Positions 613 to 60,431 of a DNA stretch of 64,000 nucleotides are shown here, in pieces. The notes below the pieces were generated by a model. The model had not been told where the DNA came from and ran no database searches. It saw only the letters and a program-made list of their open reading frames with translations. Position 1 is the stretch's first letter. Each line of letters begins with the position of its first letter. This DNA is from Branchiostoma floridae. Lineage: Eukaryota > Chordata > Leptocardii > Amphioxiformes > Branchiostomatidae. The stretch lies in the NCBI RefSeq assembly GCF_000003815.2, contig NC_049979.1, positions 22,292,210 through 22,356,209 on the forward strand, in the 5' to 3' direction. The translations under genes and the position numbers were made by a program.

Positions 613-673
613 CTGCACTGTCCTGGAACGGAGCAATGTCCATGGGCTGTGTTACAACCAACTCTGCAGACAG
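613..673 (-). CDS. Jag: Jagged exon 5: start of EGF repeat 1
   Basis: A 61-bp exon between the acceptor TTGTATTTCCAG and the donor TGCAG|GTAGGC. In the phase set by exon 4 it reads VCRVGCNTAHGHCSVPGQC, matching the first EGF half of JAG1 (ICRQGCSPKHGSCKLPGDC). Read in the longest open frame it looks like unrelated sequence, so only the spliced phase reveals the homology. It ends in phase 2; the next exon is not in the window. Confidence 0.9.
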
Positions 674-3600
674 CTGGAAATACAAGAAGGAAGTGTTAAA
701 ATGATAATGATTGATAGAAATCAGTGTAATATAATTTTTGTAGATACCTGCAAATAGCATGCAAGCCCATGTAATGTACAAATGTAGTGCAACAGTAAAG
801 CACACTGAACTTACATCCAAAATGTAATGACAGTACCATGACACATACAAAAAAAGGGAATTACTTTACAGAAGTTTGTTAGCTACTAACTATATTTCAT
901 ATAATTATATTTCTTTATGTAATTATTGTGTTGTATTACACACTGCAACATTTTTTCTTGAAAAAAATGGTTTCATTGTGGATTGAAATTCAAACATGTC
1001 AATGATAATGTTTACTGAAAAAACTCCCTTCGTACCTTCATGCTATTTTTCCTTTCACTAAATATTATAGTTTTCAGTCTATCACTAATGTTATTTCTAG
1101 GAGCTAAGTTTACTTTCAAGAGTTAACAGAAAGGTATAACCTATCATAGCATAAGGGAGTGATAAAGCCCATTTGATACTTTCTTCTGCTTGTGAAGGAC
1201 TCTACTAACGTTAGTACCAATAGGATAAGACACTACAAGGTGATAACAGGTCTGGAATGCCAGGAATTATCCTTCTCACTGCACTTACACAGTATCTGCC
1301 AGATAGGGTTGAACTGTTTCAAATACATAAGTTATAGACAACATTCCTTTCCAAGAAAAGAATAAACTAAGATAAACCCTCATTCTTTCAGTTGAGTGTG
1401 CCATGACAAGATGGCAGTTGAACTAACCAGGGTTACAGGACGGACATAAGCTTTAACTTCCACGTTTCTCAGTGGTGGTCCTTAGTTTTTTTAAGACAAT
1501 GAATAAATGCTTGTATCTTCAAATTTGCCGATGTTGATCTGAAAGATTTTCTTACAGTTGGGTGGTATTTGTAATCTGCAGCTAAGTTCCAAAGAATGAT
1601 ATTGTCACATTTCTTTAAATCAGATAAGTTAGGAATTAAGCTGAAGTATGTTCTGTTCAAGCAGTCTCCAAGCAGTTATGATCATCAGACTCTTTCACTG
1701 TGTTTCATACCTGTTCTTGCAACATTTTGTCCCTTTTCTAGTGTTGTTATTTTTTTTAAACTAACAAAGTCCTTGTTCAGTTGGAAATTTGAAGTTTTTT
1801 TATCAATGGTCCAGTATCAAAAATGTACAGAATCATCAAAGAAACAACCCAGACAGTGAAAGAATATAACTAAGCCTGTATTCCAGACCCCCATGCCAGT
1901 ATAAATATCTGGTGTGCAGGGCCTAACTCTTTAGCCTGTGAAGGCCCTGAAAACAGTCTGGCATCCAGGCTAGAAGAAGGAATTCTCAAGGTTGGCAAAG
2001 AAGTGTTTTCTAACATGATAAAGTACTCACGTGTTTTGCAGTCAGCTCCCATCCATCCTTCTCTGCAAACTTTATTCCCATTCTGATCACAGGTAAAATG
2101 TCCTACAAAGTCATCTTTGGGGCGACACAACCGACTACAGTTGGATCCATAGTAGTGCTCGTCACACAGTACCCTGATCTTGTAATCAATAACTGCTGTT
2201 GGTCCATTGTACTGAAAATTCTGCCAGGTATTTCCAGGGTGAATCATGCCAGAGACAGAGTAGCTGTCAATGAGGCCATCTGCAAAAGAGACAACCATGC
2301 GTGTTAATTCGACAAATCATGATGTAATGAACTGTAATTCTTTTTATCGATTATATGATTATCTAAATGTATTACGACAACTTCACATCATACACGTCTG
2401 ATCATTAACTGTCAATAACTTCATATGATCTACTGATATTGATATTGATATTAATATTTTTTACCATAAGCTTTTATGTTGACATTTTGTTCCATGGATT
2501 TACCAATGTATTCTATGTTTGTTGAAAGCACTAGAGTCTATCACAGAAAGACTGTTTTCATTTCTACTTCTTTTCTTATTTCACCTGCCTTCACAAATCA
2601 TCATCATCATCATCATCAACCTGATGCAAAATAGTCCACTTTTAAATCTTCAAGATGAGACTTAAAATTTTGCATTTGATTGGAATTGAAATCTTAGGAA
2701 GGAATGGTAAAAGTGACAGTAGGTGATAAGAGTTCACCAGATAGCAGCTCCCATTTCAGTTGTCACTGCTTTATTTGATGTTCAGAATTCAGCTGGTATT
2801 GGTTGTTTTGAAACTGAGCAGACTAGAATTCCAGCCTGAAGAGTCTGCTGGTCTGTGTAGGTTCAGATAGACTAACGGTCTGCCTAGAATTAATGACCTG
2901 TTTTGAACCAACCCTTTCTGTGTGCTCTTCGCCATGACAGTGATGGTACACAACAACTGACGGTAGCATACCTGTCCTGCTAGAGTTGTCCCGATCCCAA
3001 GCCTCAAGTATCAATGTGTAGCCACTCTGTAAGGTAAGCAGATGAAAGGATGACATTAGAACACGACAAAGCACTTACAATGTCAAACATAGCTTTCCAG
3101 GTACATGCGGATGGCATCAACCTATTTGGTGGAACACAATACCTTACCTATTGACCCATTACAATTCTAAACCAAAAGGAACAACTGGTAAAGCTCCCAC
3201 CAGTATCACATATCCCACACAGTCCCATACCAAGTGGCTGATGTAAGTGCGGTGTACAGTCAGGCTACTTGAACTTCCTCTTAAAAAGACGTAGTAATAG
3301 TTCCCATGGTTTTCATTTACACATGCTTCTGTACCTTGAAAAAATCAAAGCCATGTTTATCACAGCGTTCTGAATTTTTTGCATTTGTACTATTTTATAG
3401 GTTGAATTGAGAAAGAAAACTGTTCAGAAAGTTTAGTTGACAATGATGAATACATAACTAGTCAGGTGCTATAGCTCTTCTGTATACCTCCAAAATGTAT
3501 TTGCACACTTAAATACATTCTTCTTCTAGTATTTATCCAATGCTACGTGATGTATCTGTATATATATTTATAAGCAATAAGTCAAGTACTTTCAGAATAC

Positions 3601-12600: not shown

Positions 12601-14147
12601 ATTTTTTTTAAAATGAAAGCTATCATGCGACTTAGAATTAATATGACCTGTAACGTTACCCAGTGGCTAGGGCCACGCTCTCACTAAAAACATTGGGACT
12701 AGAAACCTAAAAAAATGTCCTTAGAAATAACAAAAACAAACTAACATGCACAATGGCTTTGTCCCTCACACTTTCCTTTTGTCCCGCGAAATTCTAATAC
12801 TTTTGTATTTTGAAGAGGTACGTAATTGTACGACCACGTGCAATATTTTGCTTGTAGTGCGCTCAAGTAAACAGCCACTTCGACTTGTAGTAACCTCCGA
12901 ACCTTTTCTAGTCAAGGCAAAATACGGTCAGGACCAGTGCAGTCAGTCAGGTCATCGATCCCTTTATACAAAAGCGAACATTCCCATTCATTCACTATCG
13001 TGTGTACTGCTCACAAATTTTCAGTAGTACACACAGCGCCTAATACGGCGATATCCCTTAGCGGAAAGCCCAGCGCCACGTACGTACAACCACGAGACGA
13101 CAGAGGGCCGACCGGGTTCCTGCAGGATTTGCGCGGTACACAGTAGTAACAAGGTGCCAACAACGTGACACGCTCCCACCAAGCACGCTAGCGGCCCAAC
13201 GTGAGAATCACCGCACACTTGGTAAACATACTGTACCATTCACAGTTAGCACACAACAGCAGTAAATCCACGACAACTGGGGAGTATCATACGAACCCAC
13301 TGGTGCCTACAAGACTATACCCATTGCCCGTCAGATTTTATTTTACCGAGACTGCACACGCACACACACATGCAGGGGATAGAGTCTACTACTACCGGGG
13401 TTTCACCCTCGCCCTACCGCACCGCCAACCCATGACGGCACGCACGAACCTGTTACTCTGGGACAGTGCAGATTAGCATGTTCTCATGTGCCCATAAAAG
13501 GCTTTTTCAGAAACTTCTGTCGTTTTCCACGACTCTGTGCAAAGCAAGCAACAGCCTGAACCGAACCGTCGTGTGCTCGTATAAATTCCCAATCTAAACC
13601 ATGTAACACGCCTGTGGACGGACCCCTCTCTGACATGCCCGCCCGTCACTCACCCCGTTTACACTTACCGTCCAACTAACGAATGAAAGCCGGAGTCGTC
13701 CCGCATTGTTTCCATTGTTTGACAGGGAAAAGGAATTTCCTCCCAACACGGGACTGGTGTATCTCCCAAACGTACAGGTTCCACTTGCCGATGGTTTCCT
13801 TGGTACTCCTTGAGGCAAACTCTGAAGTAAGTATCACACGCATCCTGTGTACAAGACCCGTCATAATCTTTAACTCCATCGCAGCAGTTTCCACTGCTGA
13901 GCTGACCCGCGATATTCTGTATCGAGTTAATTTGCAGCTCGAAATATCCAGAAGCATTGGAGAGCTGAAAAACAAGTTCACAACACACGGTATAAGAAAC
14001 ATGAGAAACTCCTATCAGTGTAATGAAAAATGCAATGTGAAATAGCACGCGTACCGCTCATTATAAAACTGAAAATAGTACCTGTATCGTGGAAGTTAGC
14101 AGCAGTATTCCAACAGCTTTAAGTAGGAAAGCCCCTCTATGAACCAT
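613..14147 (-). CDS. Jag: Jagged-type Notch ligand, N-terminal half (five exons; 3' part outside window)
   Basis: Type I membrane ligand that binds Notch on neighbouring cells. Coding pieces, in order: 14147-14082, 13964-13669, 3026-2972, 2279-2031, 673-613, all with GT-AG borders and matching phases. Exon 1 encodes a signal peptide, exon 2 the MNNL (C2-like) domain, exon 3 its last strand (YTLILEAWDRDNSS), exon 4 the DSL domain with six cysteines (motifs CRPKDDFVGHFTC and CDQNGNKVCREGWMG), and exon 5 the start of EGF1. The CDQNGNK and CRPKDD signatures are Jagged/Serrate rather than Delta. Exon 5 is 61 bp, the length I recall for vertebrate JAG1 exon 5; exons 3 and 4 (55 and 249 bp) keep the same phases as the vertebrate ones (52 and 255 bp). 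The remaining EGF repeats, cysteine-rich region, membrane segment and tail lie beyond base 1. Exon 2 is one base short, so the frame breaks there. Family identity is very secure; completeness cannot be judged. Confidence 0.95.
674..2030 (-). other. Jagged intron 4
   Basis: AT-rich intron between the EGF1 and DSL exons, with only short random open frames. No repeat or RNA gene was recognised. Confidence 0.75.
2031..2279 (-). CDS. Jag: Jagged exon 4: DSL domain
   Basis: A 249-bp exon between the acceptor CTCTTTTGCAG and the donor ACAC|GTGAGT, phase 1 at both ends. It encodes the linker (GMIHPGNTWQNFQYNG) and then the DSL domain from IRVLCDEHYYGSNC through CRPKDDFVGHFTC to CDQNGNKVCREGWMGADC. 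All six DSL cysteines are present. This is the domain that contacts Notch EGF11-12 in characterised ligands. Confidence 0.95.
2280..2971 (-). other. Jagged intron 3
   Basis: Intron between the exon 4 acceptor and the exon 3 donor. Besides a short (ATC)n run at 2597-2618 nothing stands out. Confidence 0.75.
2597..2618. repeat. (ATC)n microsatellite
   Basis: About seven uninterrupted ATC units inside Jagged intron 3. Confidence 0.9.
2972..3026 (-). CDS. Jag: Jagged exon 3: end of MNNL domain
   Basis: A 55-bp exon between the acceptor CTTACAG and the donor ACAG|GTATGC. It encodes SGYTLILEAWDRDNSSRT plus the first base of an Asp codon, matching the RSYTLLVEAWDSSNDT strand of JAG1. It starts in phase 0 and ends in phase 1, which fits its neighbours. 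Confidence 0.9.
4671..4678 (-). promoter_or_regulatory. CSL/Su(H) consensus site
   Basis: TTCCCACG on plus, which is CGTGGGAA on the Jagged sense strand. This is the high-affinity binding sequence of CSL (RBPJ/Su(H)), the Notch pathway transcription factor. Occupancy is not shown by sequence alone. Confidence 0.4.
8138..8145 (-). promoter_or_regulatory. CSL/Su(H) consensus site
   Basis: Second exact CGTGGGAA on the Jagged sense strand within the same intron. Confidence 0.4.
9182..9331. repeat. Direct repeat copy A (150 bp)
   Basis: From ATCCTTTCATATGCC to TTTTGTCAATGAGCTA. Nearly identical to 9897-10044; differences are limited to a few bases at the 5' end and the length of a T run. Confidence 0.9.
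9897..10044. repeat. Direct repeat copy B (148 bp)
   Basis: Same sequence and orientation as 9182-9331. The 565 bp between the copies contain imperfect AAAATGGTA-type units around 9575-9600 and 9776-9825. The layout suggests either a very short element with terminal direct repeats or a local duplication. No primer-binding site or coding sequence was recognised between them. Confidence 0.85.
13669..13964 (-). CDS. Jag: Jagged exon 2: MNNL domain, with a one-base frameshift
   Basis: The acceptor CTTGTTTTTCAG precedes 13964 and the donor ACG|GTAAGT follows 13669; both ends are phase 0. The first part reads ASGYFELQINSIQN, then GNCCDG, then DTYFRVCLKEYQ. The second part is in another frame and reads GTCTFGRYTSPVLGGNSFSL, ending LSFVSWT. 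Both halves align with the Jagged MNNL domain. The exon is 296 bp, one short of a multiple of three, and the shift falls between the CAA codon at 13802-13800 and the TGT codon at 13776-13774. Those codons are separated by 23 nt, whereas JAG1 has eight codons (24 nt) there. This is either a sequencing or assembly error or a real null allele. Confidence 0.92.
14082..14147 (-). CDS. Jag: Jagged exon 1: start codon and signal peptide
   Basis: Twenty-two codons from ATG at 14147 reading MVHRGAFLLKAVGILLL then TSTIQ, ending at the donor CAG|GTACTA (14082/14081) in phase 0. It has a basic N-terminus, a hydrophobic core and small residues at the end, as expected of a signal peptide. Exon 2 continues LSNASGYFELQ, matching the known ASG-FEL start of mature Jagged. 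The open frame extends upstream to another ATG at 14372, but that would bury the signal peptide behind 75 residues, so 14147 is preferred. Intron 1 is only 117 bp. Confidence 0.82.
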
Positions 14148-14430
14148 GCCTACTTCGTGCCAATTTCCCAACAGCCTTCCTGAGTGATTGTGGGGGAAAC
14201 GGGAGCCGCTGAACGGCGCTGGAATCGCTTGAGTTGGGCATGCACGACGACGGTATTCCTTGCCGATCGAAAAAATAATTACACAGCAGCCTGGTCTCGA
14301 GCTGTGGGAACCGCAGCGGCCGACAGATGCATTATTTTGGAGGCGCTGCCACAGGCCGCATGCGCAGATCAATTATGTATTCCGTGCCGACAAGTTGACG
14401 TTTCTTTCTATTGGCTATTGTCCTATTTTA
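14148..14430 (-). promoter_or_regulatory. Probable Jagged promoter and 5' UTR
   Basis: CpG-rich stretch immediately upstream of the Jagged start codon, contrasting with the AT-rich flanks. It contains TGTGGGAA at 14303-14310 (CSL-type), a GCATGCGCA core at 14358-14366 resembling an NRF1 half-site, and an inverted CCAAT box (ATTGG on plus) at 14410-14414. No clear TATA box. The transcription start is inferred to lie within about 300 bp of the ATG. Confidence 0.45.
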
Positions 14431-18222: not shown

Positions 18223-18274
18223 GCTAGCCGTATTATAGCTCCCGAGTATATATACCGTATTATAGCTTTCCTCT
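18223..18274. mobile_element. Fragment of foldback (MITE-like) element
   Basis: CTAGCCGTATTATAGCTCCC followed by GAGT, then a second partial copy (ACCGTATTATAGCTTTCC). The same sequence forms an arm of the intact foldback at 51595-51694, so this appears to be a degraded relative. Confidence 0.55.
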
Positions 18275-22849: not shown

Positions 22850-22963
22850 TCCAAGCAAATCCTACAGTAGCATAAGATAGTATCAAAAGCTGCCAGCCTA
22901 TGAGTGTGTATGCTACCTGGCAGTTTTTGATGCTATCTTATGCTACCGTAGGATCTGCTTGGA
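22850..22963. repeat. Long near-perfect hairpin (47-nt arms, 20-nt loop)
   Basis: Left arm 22850-22896 and right arm 22917-22963 are reverse complements at 43 of 47 positions; in RNA two of the four differences become G-U pairs in one orientation. The loop is 22897-22916. The size and shape suit either a small inverted-repeat transposon or a precursor-microRNA-like transcript. I do not recognise a known microRNA in it. Confidence 0.85.
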
Positions 22964-28858: not shown

Positions 28859-29102
28859 CTAACTAGAGTTTCCCGACTGTGACATTTTTGTGTCGTAAAA
28901 CCACATGAATGCGAACAAGAGGAGTCCAGGTCTGTTGATGGAGGAGTCCATGATGAAGTTGCGGCTGTCCCCCAGTGGAAGCTCCACCACATCTATCATC
29001 TCCCCCTCCTCCTTCACCCCTCCTCCTGCAGAAACCCTCATGTCATCTGTCACCTCAGCATAGAACAGGGTCTGCAGCGATCCCGCCACGCCAACGTTAC
29101 CT
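28859..29102 (-). CDS. NUDT14: NUDT14 exon 5 (last exon, stop at 28859-28861)
   Basis: A 244-bp exon after the acceptor GTTTACACAG, encoding GNVGVAGSLQTLFYAEVTDD, GGGVKEEGEMIDVVELPL and the C-terminus LLLFAFMWFYDTKM. Matches human GLTGSRQTMFYTEVTD and GGGLVEEGELIEVVHLPL. Part of it is duplicated at 29220-29263. Confidence 0.93.
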
Positions 29103-32100
29103 CTGTGTAAACACCAGATACAACAGTTACTCTAAATCTTCAAATGTTCATGGAGGGAAACCCTCTGTGGAAACACCAGATACAACAATTACTCTAAATC
29201 TTCAAATGTTCATGGGGGGAAAACCTCATGTCATCCGTCACCTCAGCGTAGAACAGGGTCTGCTAGACTCCGTTGCAGTCTTCGAACGGGGCTGGTTTTT
29301 ATTGGGGGGGGCATTGGTTCNNNNNNNNNNNNNNNNNNNNNNNNNNNNNNNNNNNNNNNNNNNNNNNNNNNNNNNNNNNNNNNNNNNNNNNNNNNNNNNN
29401 NNNNNNNNNNNNNNNNNNNNNNNNNNNNNNNNNNNNNNNNNNNNNNNNNNNNNNNNNNNNNNNNNNNNNNNNNNNNNNNNNNNNNNNNNNNNNNNNNNNN
29501 NNNNNNNNNNNNNNNNNNNNNNNNNNNNNNNNNNNNNNNNNNNNNNNNNNNNNNNNNNNNNNNNNNNNNNNNNNNNNNNNNNNNNNNNNNNNNNNNNNNN
29601 NNNNNNNNNNNNNNNNNNNNNNNNNNNNNNNNNNNNNNNNNNNNNNNNNNNNNNNNNNNNNNNNNNNNNNNNNNNNNNNNNNNNNNNNNNNNNNNNNNNN
29701 NNNNNNNNNNNNNNNNNNNNNNNNAGGATCTCCTCTTCACTTGAATAACAAGGATCTGATCGCCTACTCCTACGCCTATTATGATACATTTGTTTGGCTT
29801 CTCGTTTCTTAGTAATGTTGAAAATTAAACTAATAGTACTTGTAGTAAATGCTGCTGGAATTAATACTTACAGTATTTGTATGTGATTTCTTCTAATTTG
29901 CTAGCATAGAATAGTACCAACATTAATGCAAGTCATCATTGGTCTAAAATAGCCGACACCCAGCCCATCGCCACGCACGACGACCAGGACACCACCGGGG
30001 AGAACGTCCAGGACACCACCGGGGAGAACGTCCAGCACACCATCGGGGAGAACGTCCAGCACACCACCGGGGAGAACGGCCAGGACACCACCGGGGAGAA
30101 CGGCCAGGACACCACCGGGGAGAACGGCCAGGACACCACCGGGGAGAACGTCCAGCAGGAGAACGTCCAGGACACCATCGGGGAGAACGTCCAGCACACC
30201 ACCGGGGAGAACGGCCAGGACACCACCGGGGAGAACGTCCAGCACACCACCGGGGAGAACGGCCAGGACACCACCGGGGAGAACGTCCAGCACACCACCG
30301 GGGAGAACGGCCAGGACACCACCGGGGAGAACGTCCAGCACACCACCGGGGAGAACGGCCAGGACACCACCGGGGAGAACGTCCAGCACACCACCGGGGA
30401 GAACGGCCAGGACACCACCGGAGATGTCACTTGCCCACCGCCGAAGGCAGCGTCCTCTAGGTCGGTGAAAAGAATCTTGAGACAGCCTGCAAGGTGTAGA
30501 AAACGAGTAGCTCGAGCTTCCCACTCAATTCCGCCGTCCATGCCCTCCGTCCCTCCCACAACAGCTCCAGCCGCAGAGACGTCGCCACGCCGAACATCGA
30601 GGACCAGAAAACGGACCAGGAAGTTGGACTTGTAGGACAATGATAATTGTTGAGTTGTAACATTAAGTTTATGTATTCCGTATTGTATATGAGTAAGATT
30701 TCATGTTTGTTAGATTTTAGAGAAATGTCTTTTTTTTAATCGGTTAATTGTCAACTGTTAATTGTTTGTGTAAAAAGGCATAATGAATAACTTTGTTCCA
30801 CTTGTTAACTATTTACTATAATGTTCTAACATTAAGTTTCTGTATTCTGTGCTGTATTCTGTATTCTGTGCTGTACATCAAGTTTATGAGTATTGTATGT
30901 AGTTTCCATTATCATCTAGTCTGTATGTATGTATGTAGTAGTAGAAGTAGCAGTAGTACTAGTAGTTCGTGGCTTTGTATATTTTCTACTATTGCGCCTG
31001 TGAAAGCAAAACTTCAATAAATGTTGATTTGTTTAGTATTGCATGTGTGCACGTTGAGTCTAGTGTGTATTGCAACGTTCTGCCGTTGAGTTTCCGTATA
31101 AGCGTCAAAGCGTGCAGGTCCGCACATGATAACGGCAGAGTATAACAAACGATAAAAAACTCTAAAGAAACTTGAAAATGTCTTATAGCAACATAATGAC
31201 AAGCAACAATAAGACAAATTTTCTATAATTCTATGATCACTAATTAAAGGACGAAACTTACCAATGAAAAATATATAGTAATTATTACAACGTTTTGCCG
31301 TTGAGTTTCCGTATAAGCGTCAAAGCGTGCGGGTCCGCACATGATAACGGCAGAGTATAACAAACGATAAAAAACTCTAAAGAAACTTGAAAATGTCTTA
31401 TAGCAACATAATGACAAGCAACAATAAGACAAATTTTCTATAATTCTATGATCACTAATTAAAGGACGAAACTTACCAATGAAAAATATATAGTAATTAT
31501 TACAACGTTTTGCCGCTGAGTTTCCGTATAAGCGTCAAAGCGTGCGGGTCCGCACATGATAACGGCAGAGTATAACAAACGATCAAAAACTCTAAAGAAA
31601 CTTGAAAATGTCTTTTAGCAACATAATGACAAGCAACAATAGGACAAATTTTCTATAATTCTATGATCGCTAATTAAAGGACGAAACTTACCAATGAAAA
31701 ATATATAGTAATTATTACAACGTTTTGCCGTTGAGTTTCCGTATAAGCGTCAAAGCGTGCGGGTCCGCACATGATAACGGCAGAGTATAACAAACGATAA
31801 AAAACTCTAAAGAAACTTGAAAATGTCTTTTAGCAACATAATGACAAGCAACAATAGGACAAATTTTCTATAATTCTATGATCGCTAATTAAAGGACGAA
31901 ACTTACCATTCAAAAATATATAGTAATTATTGCAACGTTTTGCATGCAGTTGAGTTTCCGTATAAGCGTCAAAGCGTGCGGGTCCGCACATGATAACGGC
32001 ATGATATAACAAACGATCAAAAACTCTTTAAAAACTTGAAAATGTCTTTTAGCAACAGAATGACTAGCAACAATAAAAAAAATTCTATCATTTTCTGGTC

Positions 32101-44100: not shown

Positions 44101-47100
44101 ATTTTCTTCTTGCAAAGCCTATAAAATGGTGTTTGTAATTGTACTTCTGACAATGATAATAGTCTTAGTAATAATCTTAACACATGAGTTTCATATATAG
44201 TTTTAAGTTTTTAATTCTTTCAGCTTAGACAGTGAGGGTGTAGTTCCAGTATACAAGGAAAACAAATAACGCATACACATGGCTAGGAAAAAGGTTAATG
44301 TACACAACTTGTAGGTGACGCCCTCCTTGATTAATAGTCATTGTTGCCTAAAATAGATAGTATGTGACTATTCTGGAAACTTATCCTATACACGTACAGC
44401 TACATGTATTTCATGCATTTAAAGCACTTAATTTAGCTAATGTGAAGCCATTATGCACATCAAGAACATAACTTATGGAGATGCTCACAGATGACTAGGC
44501 TGCTTATCAGAGTGATTAATTCATAAATGTATGGTTTGTGTGCAGCATATGCATTAAGACCATTACTGCTATTTATCATCATAAGGCAAAGTGACACAAC
44601 AGTTTCGTATCAAATTGACTCATCTAGAGGTCAAAATGCAGGTTCAAGTAAAAGGTAATATATGAAAGACTATACATTGGACTTTTAAAGAGCAATAAAA
44701 TCTCTTGAAAATTTGCATGTTTGCATGTTTGTGAATAGCAAAGCATGAGAAGCCATACCTAGATAGTAGATCTTAGTAGCTCTTCATGATAGTGATGTAT
44801 GCAGGTAATTCTTGAGATATGTCAAAGGAACAATTAAATCCTGAACCCCCTGGCAACTTTCCAAGGTACTGCAGCAGGGCATCCAGTTTTAATATTTTAT
44901 GTTCTGAACATCCTGAAGCCATGATTTTTAGGTGACATTTAGCTCATTGGCTTGTGATGAAGACTTCAAGTGGTATTTGTTTGGACCCCCCTAGCACTAT
45001 TCTGGAAACTGCAGTGGGCTTTTTGCTCTCAGTTTTGGATGAGATAATTCAGAAAGGGATTTGTTGATGTTGTGTATGTTGTTCGATGTCTTGTTGGTGG
45101 ATTTTTAGTCATAAGGGTTGGGAGCGTCTGTTACACTTCACTGCTAGATATAAAGCACCTGAGGGGCTAACAAAGGGTCCAATCTACCAATATCACTGCA
45201 GCTGCCATAGATCAGGAGTAGGCAGGTAGGCTGAGTGACTCCATTAGCACTGCAACATGTCAGATAACAAGTTGGTGAAAATACTATCCAGACTGCTGGG
45301 GACCCACATTTTTCATCATTCCTCACACCGCTTCAAGTACACAAAGCTGAGTTCCGCCAAGGCCAAGTGGAGAGGTGTTCCCAAACACAATGTCAGAGGG
45401 CTCAGAAACAGGGCTGTGTCCTCTGGGAAAGTGTGCTGCAGGAAAGTGATTTGTTGTCAGCACTTCCTGCTCATTACCTTCACCAAGAGGGAGAAGAGAA
45501 TATCTTGAGAGGTTGTGGATGAATCTTCATCATATTCGGTTTATTGGTAGGTATTGGCAAAATGAAGAAATGGCTAGATTATGGGCCTTCTGGAAGTTTT
45601 CCATGGTACTGCAACAGGGGTTCTGGTTTTGATATGTCGAGTGTTCTGGATATGCTATATTTTATTTTCAAAGGTAGGCAGCTCTTGGGCTTGTGAAGAA
45701 GTGGCATAGGTTTGGGCCACCTAGGAACTTTTTTTGGAACAATTTTCTCAAATTTTCACTCTGAAAGATTTGTTATTTCACTTTGCATCTAGTAGATAAA
45801 AAAATAAGTTAAAAGACTACCTTAAGGTCACAGAGTATGATGTCATTGTTTTTGTATGTGATGCCGTGTTGCCAGGAATATTTTCAAATCAAAGATAGCA
45901 TGAGAGTCAGTATACAAAACAAGCTGCATACATAGATGAAAGATGTCTGGCTGCTGGTTGCCCCAGGCAGATGAATCAAGAATAAAGTGCTGTCAATTTG
46001 ATTTTATTTTTGAAGGGACCTGAACTTTGCAGTAGAAGGGGAAAGGGTTTTGCAGCTGAAACTTTTACTTTTACTTTTACTTTTCTTTTACTTCTGCTCT
46101 ACTGTGAAAATAAAACCATAGCAAACATTTCAAAATTCACGGTATGTTCAGAAGCCCCCTATCCTCACTCCACAGCTGCCCTGTCCACTGAACCATGCAC
46201 TTTAAAACATAAAAAGACCAGGACCTGACGATCAATCAACCCACCTGGCCGGAACTGCTTGACAAGATAGAACACCTGCCGCTTGGGGTTGTAAATGAGA
46301 ATCACCACGCTGGAAAGACAAAGTTCCAATGTTAGAAGATTTCACTGAAGTACCTTTGCATTTCAAATGACTATCTTAAATGATACCCAAACTTTTCGAA
46401 ATCATCCAGCATACTAATAAGTGATACCTGACCTTCTTGTACCAACACACAGGGGTTCGTGTTACATGCACAGTGTCTGGGTAAACACAGATCAAAGCAC
46501 AGGGGAAAGTGTTGTGAAGCTTGCTAATCAGCAGTTAACATTGTTATGTCTAAAGCAGGATTTCAAGTCATGTATGGCAATGTTGGGGTCATGCTGACAG
46601 AGCCTACAGATGCCTCCATCAGCATTAGTAAGGGCTCTTGTTTGTAAATGTTGAAGTTCTTATCTCTACAGGTGACTTGTGTTATCAGAAGTACAAATAG
46701 AAACAATTAGGCAAAAACGCACAAAATCATGTGGAAACTTGCATTGGATAGCCACCTGTAATTAGGTGGGACTAAAGCATTTACCCGAAACATAACGTTA
46801 CTAAATTTCATCCATAGGAGCGTGTGTGTTCCACATTCCACGATTGGTCAGCAGGAAATTACAGGCACAGGCCTGGCATGCCTCCATTGGCCGATACAAA
46901 CAAACTCTGTATGCTAACAAGGCCTCCTTCCTCCAGAAGGGACCCTCTACATTCTGTGCAATATCAACAGGAAGCAGAGGATAAGCTAAATACACTCCTC
47001 TTGGAGCTGCTGCATGTGAATGGGCCATTAATCTCCAAGTAGATGTATGGATATGCCATATTACTAAGTATTAGCTTCACCGAGAAGGTTACATTTATGT

Positions 47101-50100: not shown

Positions 50101-52290
50101 TGCCAATACACGTATTTGCGTGACACGAAAAAACGACACTATCAGACGTTGTGACGTCAGCTTGGGATTTTCATGCCTAATGAAGCCTTGTCTGGTTATT
50201 GCTTGGAACACCTGTGCAGACAATCATATCCACCAGGTGACACACCAAAGGGCACCTCTCACAAATGACTCATGTGGGAAAGGTCTCCGGGGTGGCTGCT
50301 GAATACCTCCCTATCCAGACTACCTTGTTATGTGGATAGAGTAGATGGCGCCCCTTTGTGTCTCTGTGTGAACAAATGTCCGCTTTTCACTTCATACAAG
50401 GAAAGTGTCTGACATGTCTTAAAAGTGTTTGTCACAGCTTCGCAATATCTCACCGAAACCTTCCTCCGGCTGCCACAGCAGACCTCCGCATCAAAAGATT
50501 TAATTAAGTTGCCACATTAGAAATCACCATTGCTCACAGGTTTCTCTTGCTAATTAAAGTTGATCTGTACATGGAAGTACCCGGGCAGGTGTGTGACAGG
50601 CAGGTTCACAGTGGGCCACCTCCTGGGACACTTCATCAAACTCTGATTAAAGCTGCCTCCTCACGTCAACCTTGACAAAGTGCAAGGTCACGACAACAAG
50701 GAGGCATTGCTAACCTTACAAGTCCTCCATCTTGTGAACAACCTTGATTCCTGTTCTTTTCTCAACTGAAGTGTGAACCATCAAAGTGGCTTTCCTTCAA
50801 CTTAAGAAGATAAAGTACAGATGCCTTTTAAGTCTCCAAATAATTACTGCTTACAGAAGAAGTGGACACAATCAAGGAAGGCATGGTCAGTTGTGAGACT
50901 GAGCAGGTTAATCTGTGGCATTGTGTGCAACACTCAGGCACAAGTCAAATTTGATGAAAACAAGTTTGTAGTCAGCTATTCTCCCCACAGGTGTTACATA
51001 CCACCTGGGTAATGTTAAAGCTTCAACTAAGGCACTTAATGGCACAAGTAGAACTGCTTTAATCGGTCTTCGACAAACAGCAGTATCTCCTGCTAATTCA
51101 AAGGTGCACACTCTTAGGTAGCAACTTGTTGCTAACTTGGTTGGCATCATGTTAGACTCCCAATAATTAGAGGGTCTGTGAACCATTTTCCCTGAGCTAC
51201 TGTAATTCAATCTTAGCCAGCCCCCCTATTCAACAATACTTGTGAAGCGTCACTTTAATGTTACATAGCACGGTTATCCTGGATTCCATGTTCGGCATTA
51301 TTGACCGATTCTTCAAAACACACAGTTAATATGCTACATGTAGACTGCTAAAAAGTCATAACGGATTATCTTGTTGTGTTGGTGTTCGTAGGCCAGTTCT
51401 ACCAACAGACATACACAAATCTAGACAGTGTAACTTTGCTTGCATATTATTGGAACATTCATCAATTGACCTTCTTGAATGTACTGCTAACTTAAGCATT
51501 ACTGGCACTTCTATATTTATGTTTAAGCCTTTCCAGAACCCAAAACAAGTCACGATATATCCTGGACCCTCAATAAAGTAGGCTAAGTATAGCCCTAGCC
51601 TGGTATCCAGCCGTATTATAGCTCCCGAGTCTCTTCTTTCCTCTCCGCAAAGGAGAGACTTGGGAGCTATAAATATGGCTGGATACCTGGCTAGTGTAGC
51701 TCATGTCGGCAGTACCACTCACCTGTCATGTACATGCATGTAGTCCCACGTTTTCTGCACACCATTCTACATTGAACAAAAGAAGAAATTAGTGGTATTA
51801 AATAAAACTTTAATATGTCATCTCAATGAGCAAAGTCAAATTCACAAAGTTTGCAGACAATAATGGGGGTCTGCTCGCCATTATATGTTAAGCGTAATCA
51901 GCTGTTCTATAACTACCATGTTAATTCATACATGGACAGCTCTAACTCCACACAGCATGCAGTAGTTTCTGGGAATTTCTCTCGGAACCTGATAAATTAT
52001 GCGTAAAACACAATCACAAACTTGTCCTGACTTATCGGATTATCGAATATTGTCCAAAGTCACACACAGTGCACGTCAGACAGAGGTAAGGCTCAGACTG
52101 GTGTGACACAGGCATTTTTGTCAGGCTTTCTATTTTGTCTGGTTTCCAAAAATCTAACCAGAAATCGTGACCATAGCAACAATGTCCAAAACACAAGATA
52201 TCAAAACTGGAAGTTCTAGAGCAGTACCAAAGAAACCTGCTAGGGGACCCAAAATCATTTATTATCAACATCTACTCCCATACCAAATAT

Positions 52291-52324
<34 letters not shown>

Positions 52325-58300: not shown

Positions 58301-58705
58301 TACAGTACACCATGCTTAAATTGCATTAAGTCTGGACTAGACAATCACTGGCTGTAAGAGAAATGGAAGAAAAACAAAAGAATTGCTCGAGTTCAGATTA
58401 GGGTGCCTTAATTCTTGAAGACTGTATAACTATTAGGTAATTTACCCACTCCCTTCTTGATCAAGGTTGCAAGTTTCAGTTCTGCCTGGTTCTTCACAAT
58501 TATTCAAAAGCAGAACTGAAACTGGCAGCTTGCATACGACGTTTGTGCACTATCTGTGACATCGCTGTTGAAACCGATGTTTTCATGCTGTGATGACTTG
58601 CTAACATTGCATATTAGTACCCACCTGAGTATATTTAACTCGTTTCGGCCGCAGAAACCTCGAATTTGTACATGGGACAATTTCTACACTGTGGATGTCT
58701 TCCAT
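28859..58705 (-). CDS. NUDT14: NUDT14, UDP-sugar diphosphatase (five coding exons, complete)
   Basis: Nudix hydrolase that splits UDP-glucose into UMP and glucose 1-phosphate, a cytosolic Mg2+-dependent reaction in characterised orthologues. Exons: 58705-58625, 51766-51723, 46309-46245, 44070-43857, 29102-28859. All have GT-AG borders and compatible phases and sum to 648 bp (215 residues plus stop; human about 222). Recognisable blocks: RFLRPKRVKYTQ (16-27), NGVQKTWDYMHVHDS (28-42), YLVKQFRPAIY (56-66), Nudix box 99-121 (GIVDKDVSLKEIAQSEILEE then VGF), and TLFYAEVTDDMR with GGGVKEEGEMIDVVELPL in the last exon. The metal-binding EE pair (117-118) is present; the usual Arg before the first box Glu is Ser113. 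The gene lies directly upstream of Jagged in the same orientation, as in human JAG2-NUDT14. The introns total about 29 kb, long for such a small enzyme. Confidence 0.95.
29101..29263. repeat. Tandem duplication with partial copy of NUDT14 exon 5
   Basis: A unit of about 62 bp covering the exon 5 acceptor and adjoining intron is present twice (29101-29160 and 29161-29223). It is followed by a 44-bp copy (29220-29263) of exon sequence 29032-29075. In the clearly matching coding part only two bases differ, both at silent third positions (Tyr TAT/TAC, Thr ACA/ACG). The copy then runs into an assembly gap. Confidence 0.85.
29321..29724. other. Assembly gap (404 N)
   Basis: Run of N. It is flanked on the left by a poly-G run and the duplicated NUDT14 exon fragment, which suggests the scaffold was joined across a difficult or heterozygous region. 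Confidence 0.99.
29915..30635 (+). CDS. Putative terminal exon of an unrecognised plus-strand gene with octapeptide repeats
   Basis: An open frame from just after the stop at 29907-29909 to the TAG at 30633-30635. It has no ATG near its start, so if coding it is a 3' exon; the AG at 29913-29914 is a possible acceptor after a pyrimidine-rich stretch. It reads a short lead (ADTQPIATHDDQDTTG), then 17 octapeptides of the type ENVQ(D/H)TTG or ENGQDTTG plus one five-residue unit ENVQQ. The tail is basic, with VKRILRQPARCRKRVARA, a Pro/Thr-rich stretch, and a Lys/Arg-rich end (RRTSRTRKRTRKLDL). AATAAA follows at 31016. All length changes keep the frame. The minus strand is also open through the repeat, so openness is weak evidence. 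The family is not recognised. It could instead be a non-coding minisatellite. Upstream exons may lie in the gap. Confidence 0.4.
30000..30422. repeat. 24-bp minisatellite, 17 full units plus one 15-bp unit
   Basis: Units are GAGAACGTCCAGCACACC or GAGAACGGCCAGGACACC, each followed by ACCGGG. From about unit 9 on, the two types alternate strictly, giving five 48-bp dimers (a higher-order repeat). The array is GC-rich inside an AT-rich intron. Confidence 0.97.
31016..31021 (+). terminator. Poly(A) signal AATAAA
   Basis: AATAAA followed by a GT-rich stretch (TGTTGATTTGTTTAG), about 380 bp after the stop of the repeat-containing open frame. It supports a plus-strand transcript ending near 31040. 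Confidence 0.5.
31068..32340. repeat. 215-bp satellite, six tandem copies
   Basis: A fixed landmark (TTGAG before TTTCCGT) recurs at 31086, 31301, 31516, 31731, 31950 and (degenerate) about 32155, giving spacings of 215, 215, 215, 219 and 205. Copies 2-4 are nearly identical; the outer ones diverge. Every full copy carries the short hairpin GTGCGG-GT-CCGCAC (A for one G in the first copy). On the minus strand each unit also shows an acceptor-like TTTCTTTAG and a donor-like ATTG|GTAAGT about 115 bp apart. Confidence 0.95.
32824..32920 (+). promoter_or_regulatory. ATGGCGGC start-like/YY1-type site, possible first exon
   Basis: CCATCATGGCGGCGG at 32819-32833 fits the YY1 consensus (ATGGCGGC) often found at the 5' ends of metazoan genes and has a good start-codon context. 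From ATG 32824 the frame reads MAADFSVPSTEPRSAVPAG and stops 14 codons later unless spliced at one of two weak GT donors following GCAG. The surroundings are CpG-rich for this intron. A downstream partner exon was not found, so this could be only a regulatory site. Confidence 0.3.
34500..34700. promoter_or_regulatory. Candidate intronic enhancer
   Basis: Low-repeat sequence with dense motif-like words: CAGCTG (E-box) at 34640-34645 immediately followed by a perfect kappaB-type GGGAAATTCC at 34651-34660, with TAAT- and ATCA-type words upstream. Proposed from appearance only; no alignment is available. Confidence 0.25.
35800..36020 (+). repeat. Dispersed repeat family, copy 1
   Basis: Contains the family core: CCCCTAGAGGCTTTTTTGGA then ACTGCAGCAGAATGTCAGG, followed by a TTTCAATATCTTGTGCTG block. 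Eight copies of this family lie in NUDT14 introns, six in this orientation. Confidence 0.6.
36926..37133. mobile_element. MITE with 37-bp terminal inverted repeats
   Basis: The left end TAGTTCACCTTAATCCGTGG and the reverse complement of the right end TAGTTCACCTTTATCCGTTG continue alike through GGTAACCTATAT, matching over about 37 bp with roughly three to four differences. It is 208 bp long without coding sequence, as expected of a non-autonomous DNA transposon. A flanking target-site duplication is not clear beyond TA. Confidence 0.8.
38341..38400 (+). mobile_element. Retroposon-like 3' tail
   Basis: GTTGTGCAATAAACTTTGAC followed by TTGACTTGAA: an AATAAA embedded in a short TTGAC-type tandem tail, the usual look of a 3'-truncated LINE or SINE end in invertebrate deuterostomes. 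The body of the element is not recognisable. Confidence 0.4.
41400..41600 (-). mobile_element. Retroelement fragment with CTGAAGAAGG...GGCCGAAA signature
   Basis: On the minus strand 41466-41438 reads CTGAAGAAGG, then TCGGAGTGTTCGGCCGAAA. This word recurs in untranslated parts of metazoan retroelements, among them Penelope-like elements that carry hammerhead ribozymes. An adjacent palindrome GAAGTC-n7-GACTTC lies near 41510. No reverse transcriptase frame is nearby, so this is a remnant. Confidence 0.4.
43337..43780 (+). repeat. Dispersed repeat family, copy 2 (diverged)
   Basis: Begins GCCAAGGAGGTTATGTTTTT, the head sequence of the family, and continues with the CATGATTTTAAGC and GACAGCTCCTGAGCCTGGG blocks. 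Confidence 0.55.
43857..44070 (-). CDS. NUDT14: NUDT14 exon 4, Nudix box
   Basis: A 214-bp exon between the acceptor CTCCCTGCAG and the donor TACAG|GTAAGC. It encodes IYMNTYHRLHGNPEEKDG, then PGSEGVTYELCAG, then the Nudix box with catalytic EE. Phase 1 in, phase 2 out. Confidence 0.95.
44800..45120 (+). repeat. Dispersed repeat family, copy 3
   Basis: Core CCTGGCAACTTTCCAAGGTA then CTGCAGCAGGGCATCCAG, followed by TTTTATGTTCTGAACATCC. Confidence 0.6.
45479..45790 (+). repeat. Dispersed repeat family, copy 4
   Basis: Core GGGCCTTCTGGAAGTTTTCC then ATGGTACTGCAACAGGGG, followed by GGCAGCTCTTGGGCTTGTGA. Confidence 0.6.
46245..46309 (-). CDS. NUDT14: NUDT14 exon 3
   Basis: A 65-bp exon between the acceptor TGTCTTTCCAG and the donor CCAG|GTGGGT, encoding VVILIYNPKRQVFYLVKQFR and P. 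The LVKQFRP block is a NUDT14 hallmark. Confidence 0.92.
47071..47410 (+). repeat. Dispersed repeat family, copy 5, with internal 53-bp tandem duplication
   Basis: Starts TCACCGAGAAGGTTACATTT. A block ATGTGTAGATGGATTGTC...GAGACCTCGA occurs twice in a row (about 47138-47242). Core GGGCCCTCTAGTAGG and GTACTGCAGCACAGCTTCC are present. Confidence 0.65.
47488..48860. repeat. Array of diverged ~220-bp units rich in inverted octamer motifs
   Basis: Successive units share CATGACGATCCGTCAAC, CTCATTAATTATGCAAAT, CAGCTACATATG-GACAAGT and TATCATGGAATG blocks; roughly three and a half units lie between 47980 and 48860, with a more distant relative from 47488. Each unit holds ATTATGCAAAT and its inverse ATTTGCATAAT 8-10 bp apart, for example at 48387-48394 and 48404-48411. 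At least ten ATGCAAAT octamers (POU/Oct consensus) occur in total. Confidence 0.75.
48860..49230 (-). repeat. Dispersed repeat family, copy 6, ending in a CA-rich microsatellite
   Basis: Same family inverted: AAAGCCGCTAGGGGGCCCA appears twice (near 48908 and 49042), followed by ACCTACCAAATATAATCGGG, a CA-rich run (about 49149-49175) and CATTCTGGCAAAGGTAAT. Confidence 0.7.
51595..51694. mobile_element. Foldback (MITE-like) element, 40-bp arms
   Basis: Left arm 51595-51633 (CTAGCCTGGTATCCAGCCGT...) and right arm 51655-51694 are reverse complements with only a few differences. The 21-nt centre can itself pair (CTCTCC/GGAGAG). It lies 29 bp below the NUDT14 exon 2 donor. A related fragment is at 18223-18274. 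Confidence 0.85.
51723..51766 (-). CDS. NUDT14: NUDT14 exon 2
   Basis: A 44-bp micro-exon after the acceptor CAATGTAG, encoding NGVQKTWDYMHVHD plus two bases of a Ser codon, ending at the donor ACAG|GTGAGT. Matches human NGAQKSWDFMKTHDS. Confidence 0.92.
52140..52375 (-). repeat. Dispersed repeat family, copy 7, with (CA)n at 52291-52330
   Basis: Core AAACCTGCTAGGGGACCCAA, ATACCAAATATCACACAC and the end block CTTCTTGGCGAAGGTAA. The microsatellite sits at the same place in the element as in copy 6, so it is part of the repeat. Confidence 0.7.
56340..56690 (+). repeat. Dispersed repeat family, copy 8
   Basis: Core CAGCTTTCCATGGCACTGCA then GCAGAACTTCCACTTTTGAT, followed by ATCTCATGTTCTGGATATGC and the TGTAGTGGGTCTTTTT block. 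Confidence 0.65.
58625..58705 (-). CDS. NUDT14: NUDT14 exon 1 (start codon)
   Basis: Twenty-seven codons from ATG at 58705: MEDIHSVEIVPCTNSRFLRP then KRVKYTQ, ending at the donor CAG|GTGGGT. It aligns with the human start (IEGASVGRC...YLRPLTLHYRQ). It is too short and too far from the other exons to show up as an open frame; found by searching for the LRP-x-YTQ block. Confidence 0.9.
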
Positions 58706-59861
58706 TTTCTCTTTCCCGGGTCGGCAAGTAATTAGAACGCAACAAAACGTTTCCTACCACCATTTCCTTTTTATCCACACATATCTAATAGTTACCCAGC
58801 ACAATGTACGCTACGATAAAAAAGTACATAACTGGTTTGAAAAAGATCAACATTTATGGCATCAATAAATCTTATGAACGGCTCAAGCTGACGACATTTT
58901 ATCCTATCTTACTGATGCGGTTTTTAGGCCAAAGTTCAATCGTGCTGGTCAAAGTTCAATCATGCAGGGGTCAGTGGAGTTCATCTTGGTGAAAAGTTGT
59001 TTTGCAAGTTTCGTCGTATCTACACGGTAAGATATTTCTGGAATTTTTAAAAACCATACCTGAACACTGTCTTGAATTGCCCTTGTTCTACCTGAAGGAT
59101 AAAGACCAGCATATGCATTGTGCTTCCTCTGTTTGTATTTATAGATTATTCTTTTGAAACTGGGTGGACCGTTGGGCATGGGAGGGGTGGGCTGGGCCGT
59201 GTGTGGGCATATGCAACCGGAAAAGAAAGCTAGGGCGTTGGGTTTAGAGTCTCATTCATGAGCTTTTTTATTACATTGTGAGTACTGTAAAAAGGCTCAG
59301 GTGAGCTCATTCATAATGAACATTAACTGGAAATGCGCCAAGGTCATTCATTCTACAGACAGCTACAAATTATGTAACTAGCCCTGACCACTCTTAAATT
59401 CATTATATGGGGATGTATTTGCTTGTACATGTATATATATATAGTGGCCCCAATAGAGTCGTGGAGGGCTGCATTAGAAAATGGTTTCTGGGTTTCCGGT
59501 GCTTGAAGATCTCCCATTCCTCAGTGATTTTTTTGCATGTCCCAGGCTTCCCTGCAGTCTTACCTACTGGGCAGGGGCTTTCGTGATCTTCGGTTCCTAA
59601 AGCAGTCTGCAATACAACCACTGTCAACCTTTGCTGATAGAGCAGAATATGCAAAACTGTTCCGGGTTGCCATCTTGCTTAACTCTGTTTGGGACCACCT
59701 CCAGGCAACTTTTTGTAGCCTTTCCGGTTATCGTTGTTTTTGGCGATTTAAACTAGGTCTTAAGTTTAAAATACGGTGGATTCCTGGGTATTTTCACACT
59801 ATAGATAGTTGGACTGATGACAACAGCTGCAGTGCTAATCAGAGATATCCCTCTCTTCCAG
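58706..59861. promoter_or_regulatory. Divergent intergenic region between NUDT14 and C6orf120
   Basis: The two start codons face away from each other about 1.2 kb apart, so this interval must hold both 5' ends. It contains an ETS-type CCGGAA at 59217-59222 next to a GGGGTGGGCTGGG (GC/Sp1-like) stretch. The C6orf120 acceptor CTCTCTTCCAG at 59851-59861 implies a non-coding first exon upstream that I could not place. Confidence 0.45.
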
Positions 59862-59900
59862 TTAGCTTCATGTTTAGCTAAAGTCTCATCATCACTCATC

Positions 59901-60431
59901 ATGAAAATCTTGACGTTGAGTTTCGTGTGGTCACACATGAGATGGCTCAAGATCCTCATGTATGCCGTCACCTTCCTGGCCACCCTGGTCCTGGCCTCCA
60001 AGCGGGACTACGTTTTACAGTCATTCAACGGAAACGTTGGGGCTGGGAACTACACCTACTACCAGATGTACCGGGAAGGGGAGGTCACCCTTTTGGTGGA
60101 AACGCTAGAGGGCGATGCAGACATCTACGTGTCATCCACTAGCCTGTCCCCTGACTTTGATAACTATGACATGAACTCGGTGACTTGTGGGGAGGACAAA
60201 GTGGAGATACCCAGTGACATGAAGAGACCCGTGGGTATAGGTATCTACGGACACCCCTCTCACGACTCCACCAGGTATCGCTTCACTGTGCTGGTGGACT
60301 ACTTTTCAGGTAGCGAGTCATTTGTTCAAGGAAACAACAGAGAAGAAAGCGATGAGGATGTAGAAGAGGAGTCCATATTATGGACCATATTTGTAAGCAT
60401 ATTGAAGATATTGCTAGATATCTTGGTTTAA
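59901..60431 (+). CDS. C6orf120: C6orf120 homologue (UPF0669 secreted protein)
   Basis: Intact 176-residue protein in one coding exon (human about 191). A basic and hydrophobic leader (residues 1-33, MRWLKILMYAVTFLATLVLA) fits a signal peptide. The family core follows: VGAGNYTYYQMYREGEVTLL (47-66) with an N-glycosylation sequon at Asn50, GDADIYVSSTSLSP (71-84), TCGEDKVEIP (95-104), RPVGIGIYGHPSH (109-121). After an acidic stretch (148-158) comes the conserved C-terminus SILWTIFVSILKILLDIL. All these blocks match human C6orf120, a secreted glycoprotein reported to affect T-cell apoptosis; its biochemical role is unknown. Start choice: ATG 59901 follows a likely 3' splice site at 59861 and a three-codon upstream ORF; upstream in-frame codons back to 59817 would lie in the intron. 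Met13 is an alternative start. Confidence 0.95.
   Translation: MKILTLSFVWSHMRWLKILMYAVTFLATLVLASKRDYVLQSFNGNVGAGNYTYYQMYREGEVTLLVETLEGDADIYVSSTSLSPDFDNYDMNSVTCGEDKVEIPSDMKRPVGIGIYGHPSHDSTRYRFTVLVDYFSGSESFVQGNNREESDEDVEEESILWTIFVSILKILLDILV

What the first reader, a model, noticed from the sequence alone, without database searches (positions are those of the whole stretch)
613..60431. Ancient chordate microsynteny: Jagged and NUDT14 adjacent and collinear, with C6orf120 beyond
NUDT14 lies directly upstream of Jagged on the same strand, exactly the order and orientation of human NUDT14 and JAG2 at 14q32.33. The third neighbour, C6orf120, is in human at 6q27, the same band as the Notch ligand DLL1. 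A single pre-duplication block (Notch ligand, NUDT14, C6orf120) that was later split between paralogous regions would explain both. Linkage to a developmental gene may be kept because regulatory DNA of Jagged sits inside NUDT14 (a genomic regulatory block).
Basis: partly seen in the sequence, partly recalled or inferred. Interest (0 to 1): 0.8.

Follow-up and report, generated by a model that had tools for sequence, protein, structure and literature searches.

The report
Jagged–NUDT14 gene neighbours kept in amphioxus
In what is almost certainly an amphioxus chromosome, the Notch-ligand gene Jagged still sits directly behind the metabolic gene NUDT14, as in humans, probably because the pair was never separated in half a billion years; the third gene, C6orf120, is better explained by belonging to the same ancient chromosome.

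Summary
The minus strand holds the first five Jagged exons (14147–613) and, upstream, a complete five-exon NUDT14 (58705–28859, 215 aa, 93 of 205 aligned residues identical to human). C6orf120 (59817/59901–60431) is on the plus strand, head-to-head with NUDT14, about 1.1 kb away. No other gene was detected between them. NUDT14 bridges the only assembly gap with exons in order. Published passages place human NUDT14 and JAG2 adjacent on one strand.

In the window's genome NUDT14 and C6orf120 have one locus each. Two DSL genes were found, Jagged and Delta, both on C1 (35.3 Mb, 6.9% of the assembly). BRF1, a BTBD3/6-type gene, TBP, PDCD2 and PACS also lie on C1, BTBD3/6 and BRF1 again as a divergent pair. 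The mammalian run JAG2–NUDT14–BRF1–BTBD6 is thus two amphioxus pairs 18 Mb apart.

Jagged–NUDT14 is best read as an ancient chordate pair. The proposed three-gene block is not needed: C6orf120 and DLL1 can share 6q27 because both descend from this chromosome; here C6orf120 is 13 Mb from Delta. The regulatory-block mechanism is plausible but untested. No outgroup genome was available.

The parts
14082..14147 (-). Jagged exon 1, coding part: signal peptide, 22 codons from ATG
   Evidence: Open frame joining in phase 0 to exon 2; donor GT
13669..13964 (-). Jagged exon 2, MNNL domain; 296 nt, frame changes inside the exon in this assembly
   Evidence: Pfam MNNL E=2.2e-19; frame change seen
2972..3026 (-). 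Jagged exon 3 (part of MNNL)
   Evidence: AG/GT borders and reading
2031..2279 (-). Jagged exon 4, end of MNNL and DSL domain
   Evidence: Pfam DSL E=3.5e-20; JAG1 109 bits vs DLL1 69 bits; end base counted by hand
613..673 (-). Jagged exon 5, start of EGF1 (61 nt); gene continues beyond the window
   Evidence: AG/GT borders and reading frame
28859..29102 (-). NUDT14 exon 5 with stop codon
43857..44070 (-). NUDT14 exon 4, Nudix box region
   Evidence: human NUDT14 E=2.7e-7 from this exon's ORF alone
46245..46309 (-). NUDT14 exon 3
51723..51766 (-). NUDT14 exon 2
58625..58705 (-). NUDT14 exon 1 with start codon
59817..60431 (+). C6orf120 (UPF0669), single-exon ORF with stop; first in-frame ATG 59817, next 59901
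   Evidence: Pfam UPF0669 E=2e-42; start codons
14148..28858 (.). 14.7-kb Jagged–NUDT14 intergenic segment, no gap, no gene detected; candidate regulatory DNA (inference)
   Evidence: Pfam on ORFs of at least 66 aa (of limited sensitivity), no tRNA, no Rfam match; length
58706..59816 (.). Divergent NUDT14–C6orf120 intergenic segment, possible shared promoter region (inference)
29321..29724 (.). Assembly gap (404 N) inside NUDT14 intron 4

Best explanation
Jagged and NUDT14 are an ancient tandem gene pair that the chordate ancestor already had and that both the amphioxus and vertebrate lines kept (adjacency shown for this genome, and in print for human and cow; common descent is inferred). They sit on a chromosome that descends from one ancestral chordate linkage group carrying Delta, Jagged, NUDT14, C6orf120, BRF1, BTBD3/6, TBP, PDCD2 and PACS; gene order within it has been shuffled. 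After the vertebrate genome duplications, copies of that chromosome gave 14q32.33 (JAG2, NUDT14, BRF1, BTBD6, PACS2) and 6q27 (DLL1, C6orf120, TBP, PDCD2). C6orf120 lies beside NUDT14 here as a local arrangement that one inversion can make from the mammalian order, or the reverse. The likeliest reason that the pair survived is regulatory: Jagged control elements upstream, in the 14.7-kb spacer and perhaps NUDT14's 29 kb of introns, make breaks there harmful. This last step is inferred, at about 0.45; neutral survival is nearly as likely.
For: Gene models and identities. Human NUDT14–JAG2 adjacent and on one strand: PMC4450057 passages, chr14 coordinates in a PMC5834868 passage; cow genes listed as JAG2, NUDT14, BRF1, BTBD6, PACS2 in a PMC11108207 passage. 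Human 6q27 content with C6orf120, DLL1, TBP and PDCD2 in PMC3924830 passages. In the window's genome, 6 of the 6 further families that were asked for and answered have a member on C1 that reads as the expected one: Delta, BRF1 (77), BTBD3/6-type (90, 93), TBP (86, 87), PDCD2 (102, 103), PACS (115). C1 is 6.9% of the assembly. Other members of these families fall on C2 (TBP family), C13 (PDCD2 family), C2 and C7 (PHR family). BTBD3/6 (−) and the 3' half of BRF1 (+) are neighbours at C1:3.99–4.01 Mb. [quoted passage not shown]
Against: No other amphioxus, hemichordate, echinoderm, lamprey or gar genome could be searched, so conservation rests on one amphioxus and published mammalian order. TBP, PDCD2 and BTBD3/6 were told from their paralogues by reading translations against recalled human proteins, without trees; for the PDCD2 family the best-scoring hit is on C13, not C1. 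Two further requests did not complete: PF13910 and the off-target control PF00870, so no formal control exists. I chose the families, knowing their human places. The DSL search scored 150 of 504 candidates. That C1 equals BFL1 or CLGA is inferred. There is no chromatin, expression or conserved non-coding evidence for the regulatory step.
Confidence: 0.75

Rival explanations
1. Neutral survival: the pair is one of the adjacent pairs that shuffling happened not to break; no regulatory interlock.
For: Another pair on the same chromosome also survives: BTBD3/6–BRF1 at C1:3.99–4.01 Mb. The 14.7-kb spacer is a small target.
Against: Gene order within amphioxus chromosomes is described as largely scrambled (PMC7269912), and one partner is a developmental gene, the class for which bystander pairs are described (PMC8851819 passages).
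Confidence: 0.4
2. One reading: a compact pre-duplication block of a Notch ligand, NUDT14 and C6orf120 that was later split between 14q32.33 and 6q27.
For: The three genes are consecutive here, and C6orf120 and DLL1 share 6q27.
Against: C6orf120 is beside Jagged here but with DLL1 (Delta class) in human; Delta is 13 Mb away. Bovine NUDT14 has BRF1 on that side. Six 14q32.33/6q27 genes tested besides those of the window are on C1 too, most of them far apart, so a shared chromosome suffices.
Confidence: 0.2
3. Transcriptional coupling: NUDT14 and Jagged stay together because read-through from NUDT14 into Jagged is used.
For: Human NUDT14-JAG2 cis-spliced RNA exists (PMC4450057; also in a list in PMC5834868).
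Against: The human fusion is labelled frame-shift in PMC5834868; in amphioxus 14.7 kb separate the genes; no transcript data here.
Confidence: 0.07
4. Independent coming together of the two genes in the two lineages, by chance.
For: Both genes were on one shuffled chromosome, so random re-adjacency is possible.
Against: Needs the same neighbour, the same order and the same strand twice; roughly one in a thousand or less for given genes on a chromosome of over a thousand genes (rough estimate, gene number assumed).
Confidence: 0.05
5. Assembly artefact: the neighbours were joined wrongly.
For: There is one 404-base gap in the window and repeats beside it.
Against: The gap is inside NUDT14 intron 4; exons 1–4 lie on one side and exon 5 on the other in order, strand and phase, and no second NUDT14 locus was found. 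Jagged–NUDT14 and NUDT14–C6orf120 segments hold no N.
Confidence: 0.02

Closest known systems
Mammalian 14q32.33 run JAG2–NUDT14–BRF1–BTBD6
   Same: Jagged directly downstream of NUDT14 on one strand; BRF1 and BTBD3/6 neighbours in both, divergent here and in human (human strands of BRF1/BTBD6 recalled)
   Different: In amphioxus the run is two pairs 18 Mb apart on C1; NUDT14's upstream neighbour is C6orf120
Genomic regulatory blocks / bystander pairs such as wnt7–atxn10 (PMC8851819 passage; Irimia 2012 seen only as a reference)
   Same: Developmental gene beside an unrelated household gene with large introns
   Different: No enhancer, chromatin or conserved non-coding evidence obtained for Jagged–NUDT14
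Ancestral chordate linkage groups (Simakov et al. 2020, PMC7269912)
   Same: Genes of 14q32.33 and 6q27 on one amphioxus chromosome with scrambled order
   Different: The parts of the paper that I saw treat whole-chromosome linkage, not this pair
Human NUDT14-JAG2 cis-spliced read-through RNA (PMC4450057)
   Same: Same two genes, same order and strand
   Different: A human transcript; no amphioxus transcript data seen here

Membership tests
Jagged (Notch ligand) | MNNL and DSL domains closer to Jagged than to Delta | tested here: met
   Both domains; closeness tested on the DSL exon; the genome's other DSL hit is Delta
Jagged (Notch ligand) | EGF array, cysteine-rich domain, transmembrane segment, tail | tested here: inconclusive
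   Start of EGF1 in window; EGF-like ORFs and a TM-plus-tail ORF beyond the left edge read by eye; the tail ORF had no informative Pfam match
NUDT14 | Full-length similarity to human NUDT14 above other Nudix proteins | tested here: met
   171 bits vs 50 for the best other protein; 93 of 205 aligned residues identical
C6orf120 (UPF0669) | UPF0669 model above its cut-off | tested here: met
   145.5 bits vs 27; one locus found in the genome
Conserved microsyntenic pair | Adjacent with same order and orientation in amphioxus and vertebrates | tested here: met
   This window; human and cow from passages of PMC4450057, PMC5834868, PMC11108207
Conserved microsyntenic pair | Present in outgroups (hemichordate, echinoderm, mollusc) and other lancelets | not testable with these tools
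   No animal genome other than the window's own was offered by the tools
Single block of Notch ligand, NUDT14 and C6orf120 | C6orf120 kept close to the same ligand or to NUDT14 in vertebrates | tested here: not met
   Bovine NUDT14 has BRF1 on that side; C6orf120 is with DLL1 in human but 13 Mb from Delta here
Genomic regulatory block | Target-gene enhancers inside the bystander gene | not testable with these tools
   No chromatin, reporter or cross-species non-coding data
Ancestral chordate linkage group | 14q32.33 and 6q27 genes share one amphioxus chromosome | tested here: met
   6 of 6 further families answered have the expected member on C1; two requests unanswered (PF13910, control PF00870)

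The most novel reading that the evidence does not exclude
The chordate, perhaps bilaterian, ancestor had a Jagged–NUDT14–BRF1–BTBD3/6 neighbourhood on the same chromosome as Delta, and amphioxus split it by one inversion whose other break lies beside C6orf120. Jagged–NUDT14 resisted such breaks because Jagged enhancers conserved for over 500 million years lie between the genes or in NUDT14 introns, making NUDT14 a bystander of a core signalling ligand.
Probability: 0.2. Interest if true: 0.6.

Novelty: new member of a known kind. Interest (0 to 1): 0.42.

Why it matters
If the pair was kept by selection, the 14.7-kb spacer and the NUDT14 introns become a short list of places to look for ancient Jagged enhancers, testable in amphioxus and zebrafish. 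Delta and Jagged on one chromosome, with JAG2/NUDT14/BRF1/BTBD6/PACS2 and DLL1/TBP/PDCD2 orthologues along it, gives a simple account of why the human Notch ligands lie in paralogous regions, and shows which part of the mammalian gene order is micro-scale inheritance and which is only shared chromosome.

Tried and rejected
Considered and rejected: a misjoin (NUDT14 bridges the only gap); the DSL gene being Delta. Further genes between the three were looked for: Pfam was run on 147 of the 200 ORFs of at least 66 aa listed, a list that had already left out ORFs starting in two repeat stretches and those rich in N. The 53 not submitted were 46 left of 14.18 kb and 7 others, one of them the known NUDT14 exon 4. 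Only UPF0669 was significant, the rest at E 0.0011 or worse. This test is weak: the ORF with NUDT14 exon 5 was among the 147 and Pfam did not recognise it, and NUDT14 exon 4 alone scored only E=0.056 for NUDIX, so single exons of another gene could be missed. A CpG-rich shared promoter between NUDT14 and C6orf120 was looked for: CpG observed/expected is 0.52 there against 0.48 window-wide, so no island. Rfam and tRNA scans gave nothing. Outputs were cut in the middle, so some flank ORFs right of the window were not seen.

Paper searches that bear on the pair: NUDT14+JAG2+synteny 0 papers; amphioxus+Jagged+microsynteny 1, not opened; NUDT14+amphioxus 1, not opened, unrelated by title; six-term gene-order search 3, of which 2 opened in passages; C6orf120+DLL1+synten 1, passages; NUDT14+JAG2 4, of which 3 in passages; Notch-ligand synteny 9, one in passages, PMC11594159, which added nothing; linkage groups 7, PMC7269912 section 6 and passages; microsynteny/bystander 10, PMC6292497 and PMC8851819 in passages (the term Jag has 0 occurrences in PMC6292497, and its single match in the PMC8851819 passages is an author name); Branchiostoma/Jagged/Delta/ohnolog 0. 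In these searches of an open-licence library I saw no paper that describes the amphioxus Jagged–NUDT14 pair; most subscription papers and all supplements were out of reach. Irimia 2012 is not held.
Full report
What is in the window. The minus strand holds the 5' part of a Jagged gene. Exon 1 (14147–14082) encodes a signal peptide, exon 2 (13964–13669) most of the MNNL domain (Pfam E=2.2e-19), exon 3 is 3026–2972, exon 4 (2279–2031) carries the DSL domain (E=3.5e-20), and exon 5 (673–613) the start of the first EGF repeat. The DSL exon matches JAG1 at 109 bits, JAG2 at 99 and DLL1 at 69, so it is Jagged, not Delta. Beyond the left edge, EGF-like ORFs and a transmembrane-plus-tail ORF near C1:22.268 Mb continue on the same strand (read by eye).

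Upstream on the same strand is a complete NUDT14: five exons at 58705–58625, 51766–51723, 46309–46245, 44070–43857 and 29102–28859, AG/GT at all four introns, a 648-nt reading frame of 215 codons plus stop. It aligns to human NUDT14 over residues 1–205 at 171 bits, with other Nudix proteins at 50 bits or less; 93 of 205 aligned residues are identical. The gene spans 29.8 kb because of introns of 6.9, 5.4, 2.2 and 14.8 kb. C6orf120 is a single-exon ORF on the plus strand ending at 60431 (UPF0669, E=2e-42), with in-frame starts at 59817 and 59901. NUDT14 and C6orf120 are head-to-head, 1.1–1.2 kb apart; Jagged's ATG and NUDT14's stop are 14.7 kb apart. Among 147 ORFs of at least 66 aa from 14.2 to 64 kb Pfam recognised only C6orf120; since it also missed the NUDT14 exon 5 ORF among them, this excludes a well-marked gene, not every exon.

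Is the scaffold sound? The only gap, 404 N at 29321–29724, lies inside NUDT14 intron 4. The exons lie on both sides in order, strand and phase, and all four hits of a genome-wide NUDT14 search are at this locus, so the gene itself bridges the gap.

The genome. The window is C1:22,292,210–22,356,209 of a 513.4-Mb assembly of 431 contigs; C1 is 35.3 Mb. From size and content I take it for Branchiostoma floridae (recalled; no tool named the organism). UPF0669 has one locus. DSL has two among 150 scored of 504 candidates: Jagged, and one at C1:9.04 Mb that scores 123 bits to DLL1 and 64 to JAG1, hence Delta. Both Notch ligands found are thus on the same chromosome, 13 Mb apart.

Mammalian neighbours. 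A PMC11108207 passage lists cow genes in the order CDCA4, GPR132, JAG2, NUDT14, BRF1, BTBD6, PACS2. PMC4450057 passages report a NUDT14-JAG2 cis-spliced RNA between adjacent human genes, which fixes order and strand. PMC3924830 passages list 6q27 genes WDR27, C6orf120, PHF10, TCTE3, DLL1, FAM120B, PSMB1, TBP and PDCD2 (printed PCD2 in one place) in a region of about 900 kb. I asked for families of such genes in the window's genome; six were answered. Delta is at C1:9.04 Mb, BRF1 at 4.01, a BTBD3/6-type gene at 3.99, TBP at 13.35, PDCD2 at 1.31 and PACS at 19.04. That is 6 of 6 on a chromosome that makes up 6.9% of the assembly; as independent draws the chance is about 1e-7, a rough figure because I chose the families for their human places, because BTBD and BRF1 are neighbours, and because three families have other members elsewhere: TBP family on C2, PDCD2 family on C13 (the best-scoring hit of that search), PHR family on C2 and C7. 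I read those as TBPL1-like, PDCD2L-like and other PHR proteins from translations and recalled human proteins, without trees. A seventh family (PF13910) and a formal off-target control (PF00870) were asked for and never answered.

Two pairs, one inversion. The BTBD3/6-type gene (−, 3.993–3.996 Mb) and BRF1 (+) are neighbours. BRF1's model hits lie at 4.0056 and 4.0098 Mb, so its 5' part must lie towards BTBD; I did not identify those exons, and 5 kb between the two genes is N, the rest repeats and unassigned ORFs that I did not scan for domains. The pair is thus divergent, as BTBD6 and BRF1 are in human (strands recalled). So the mammalian run JAG2–NUDT14–BRF1–BTBD6 exists in amphioxus as two pairs 18 Mb apart. 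Writing C1 as BTBD(−) BRF1(+) … Jagged(−) NUDT14(−) C6orf120(+), one inversion with breaks to the right of BRF1 and to the right of NUDT14 gives BTBD(−) BRF1(+) NUDT14(+) Jagged(+) …, which is the mammalian order and orientation. The polarity is open without an outgroup, but in either case the NUDT14–C6orf120 contact coincides with a break and is not shared with cow. This is inference from order; I recall, without a call, that BTBD3 lies near JAG1 at 20p12, which fits.

Reading. The Jagged–NUDT14 pair is best read as an old chordate microsynteny, and the C6orf120–DLL1 coincidence as macrosynteny of one ancestral linkage group. PMC7269912 (section 6 read in full, other passages) says that amphioxus chromosomes keep ancestral linkage while gene order is largely scrambled, that BFL1 corresponds one-to-one to a linkage group, and that the left arm of chicken chromosome 3 and right arm of 5 hold blocks of pure CLGA ancestry. 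A title in the reference list of PMC521070 places JAG2 on distal chicken chromosome 5. That C1 is BFL1 and CLGA is inferred.

Mechanism. The regulatory-block idea (enhancers of a developmental gene lodged in a bystander; background in PMC8851819 passages) fits a household gene with 29 kb of introns beside Jagged, and I give it about 0.45. Neutral survival is about 0.4: a second pair, BTBD3/6–BRF1, survives on the same chromosome. Read-through coupling exists in human but is unlikely to be the reason. None of these was tested, because no chromatin, expression or second animal genome was available.

Noticed in passing
13669-13964 (-): Jagged exon 2 is 296 nt and its MNNL reading changes frame inside the exon; probably an assembly error or an allele, described only.
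   Followed up: partly
29099-29290 and 29321-29724: A partial, frame-disrupted copy of the NUDT14 last exon and a 62-bp tandem repeat lie beside the assembly gap; possibly a local duplication or haplotype leftover.
   Followed up: partly
29980-30421 and 31068-32225: A G+C-rich 24/48-bp minisatellite and 5.4 copies of a 215-bp unit lie in NUDT14 intron 4.
   Followed up: no
58706-59816: NUDT14 and C6orf120 are divergent with about 1.1 kb between start codons; a shared promoter is possible, though no CpG enrichment is seen.
   Followed up: partly
L003, C1:9036290-9036409: Delta lies on the same chromosome as Jagged; these are the two DSL loci found, with 150 of 504 candidates scored.
   Followed up: yes
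L032-L034, C1:3992711-4010048: BTBD3/6-type gene and BRF1 are neighbours as in mammals; an uninterrupted 617-aa ORF that looks RING/B-box-like (by eye) sits between two BRF1 exons.
   Followed up: partly
L015, L017, L018 (left flank): Left of Jagged: a partial C4 zinc finger (L017, E=1.6e-8), another just under its cut-off (L018, 20.8 vs 21.1 bits), and an ORF that looks like a nuclear-receptor ligand domain by eye but has no Pfam match (L015).
   Followed up: partly
L008, L009, L012, L019 (right flank): Beyond C6orf120: TB- and EGF-domain exons (fibrillin/LTBP-like), a kinesin motor exon and a LanC-like gene; one ORF that looked RBR-like by eye (L020) had no Pfam match.
   Followed up: partly
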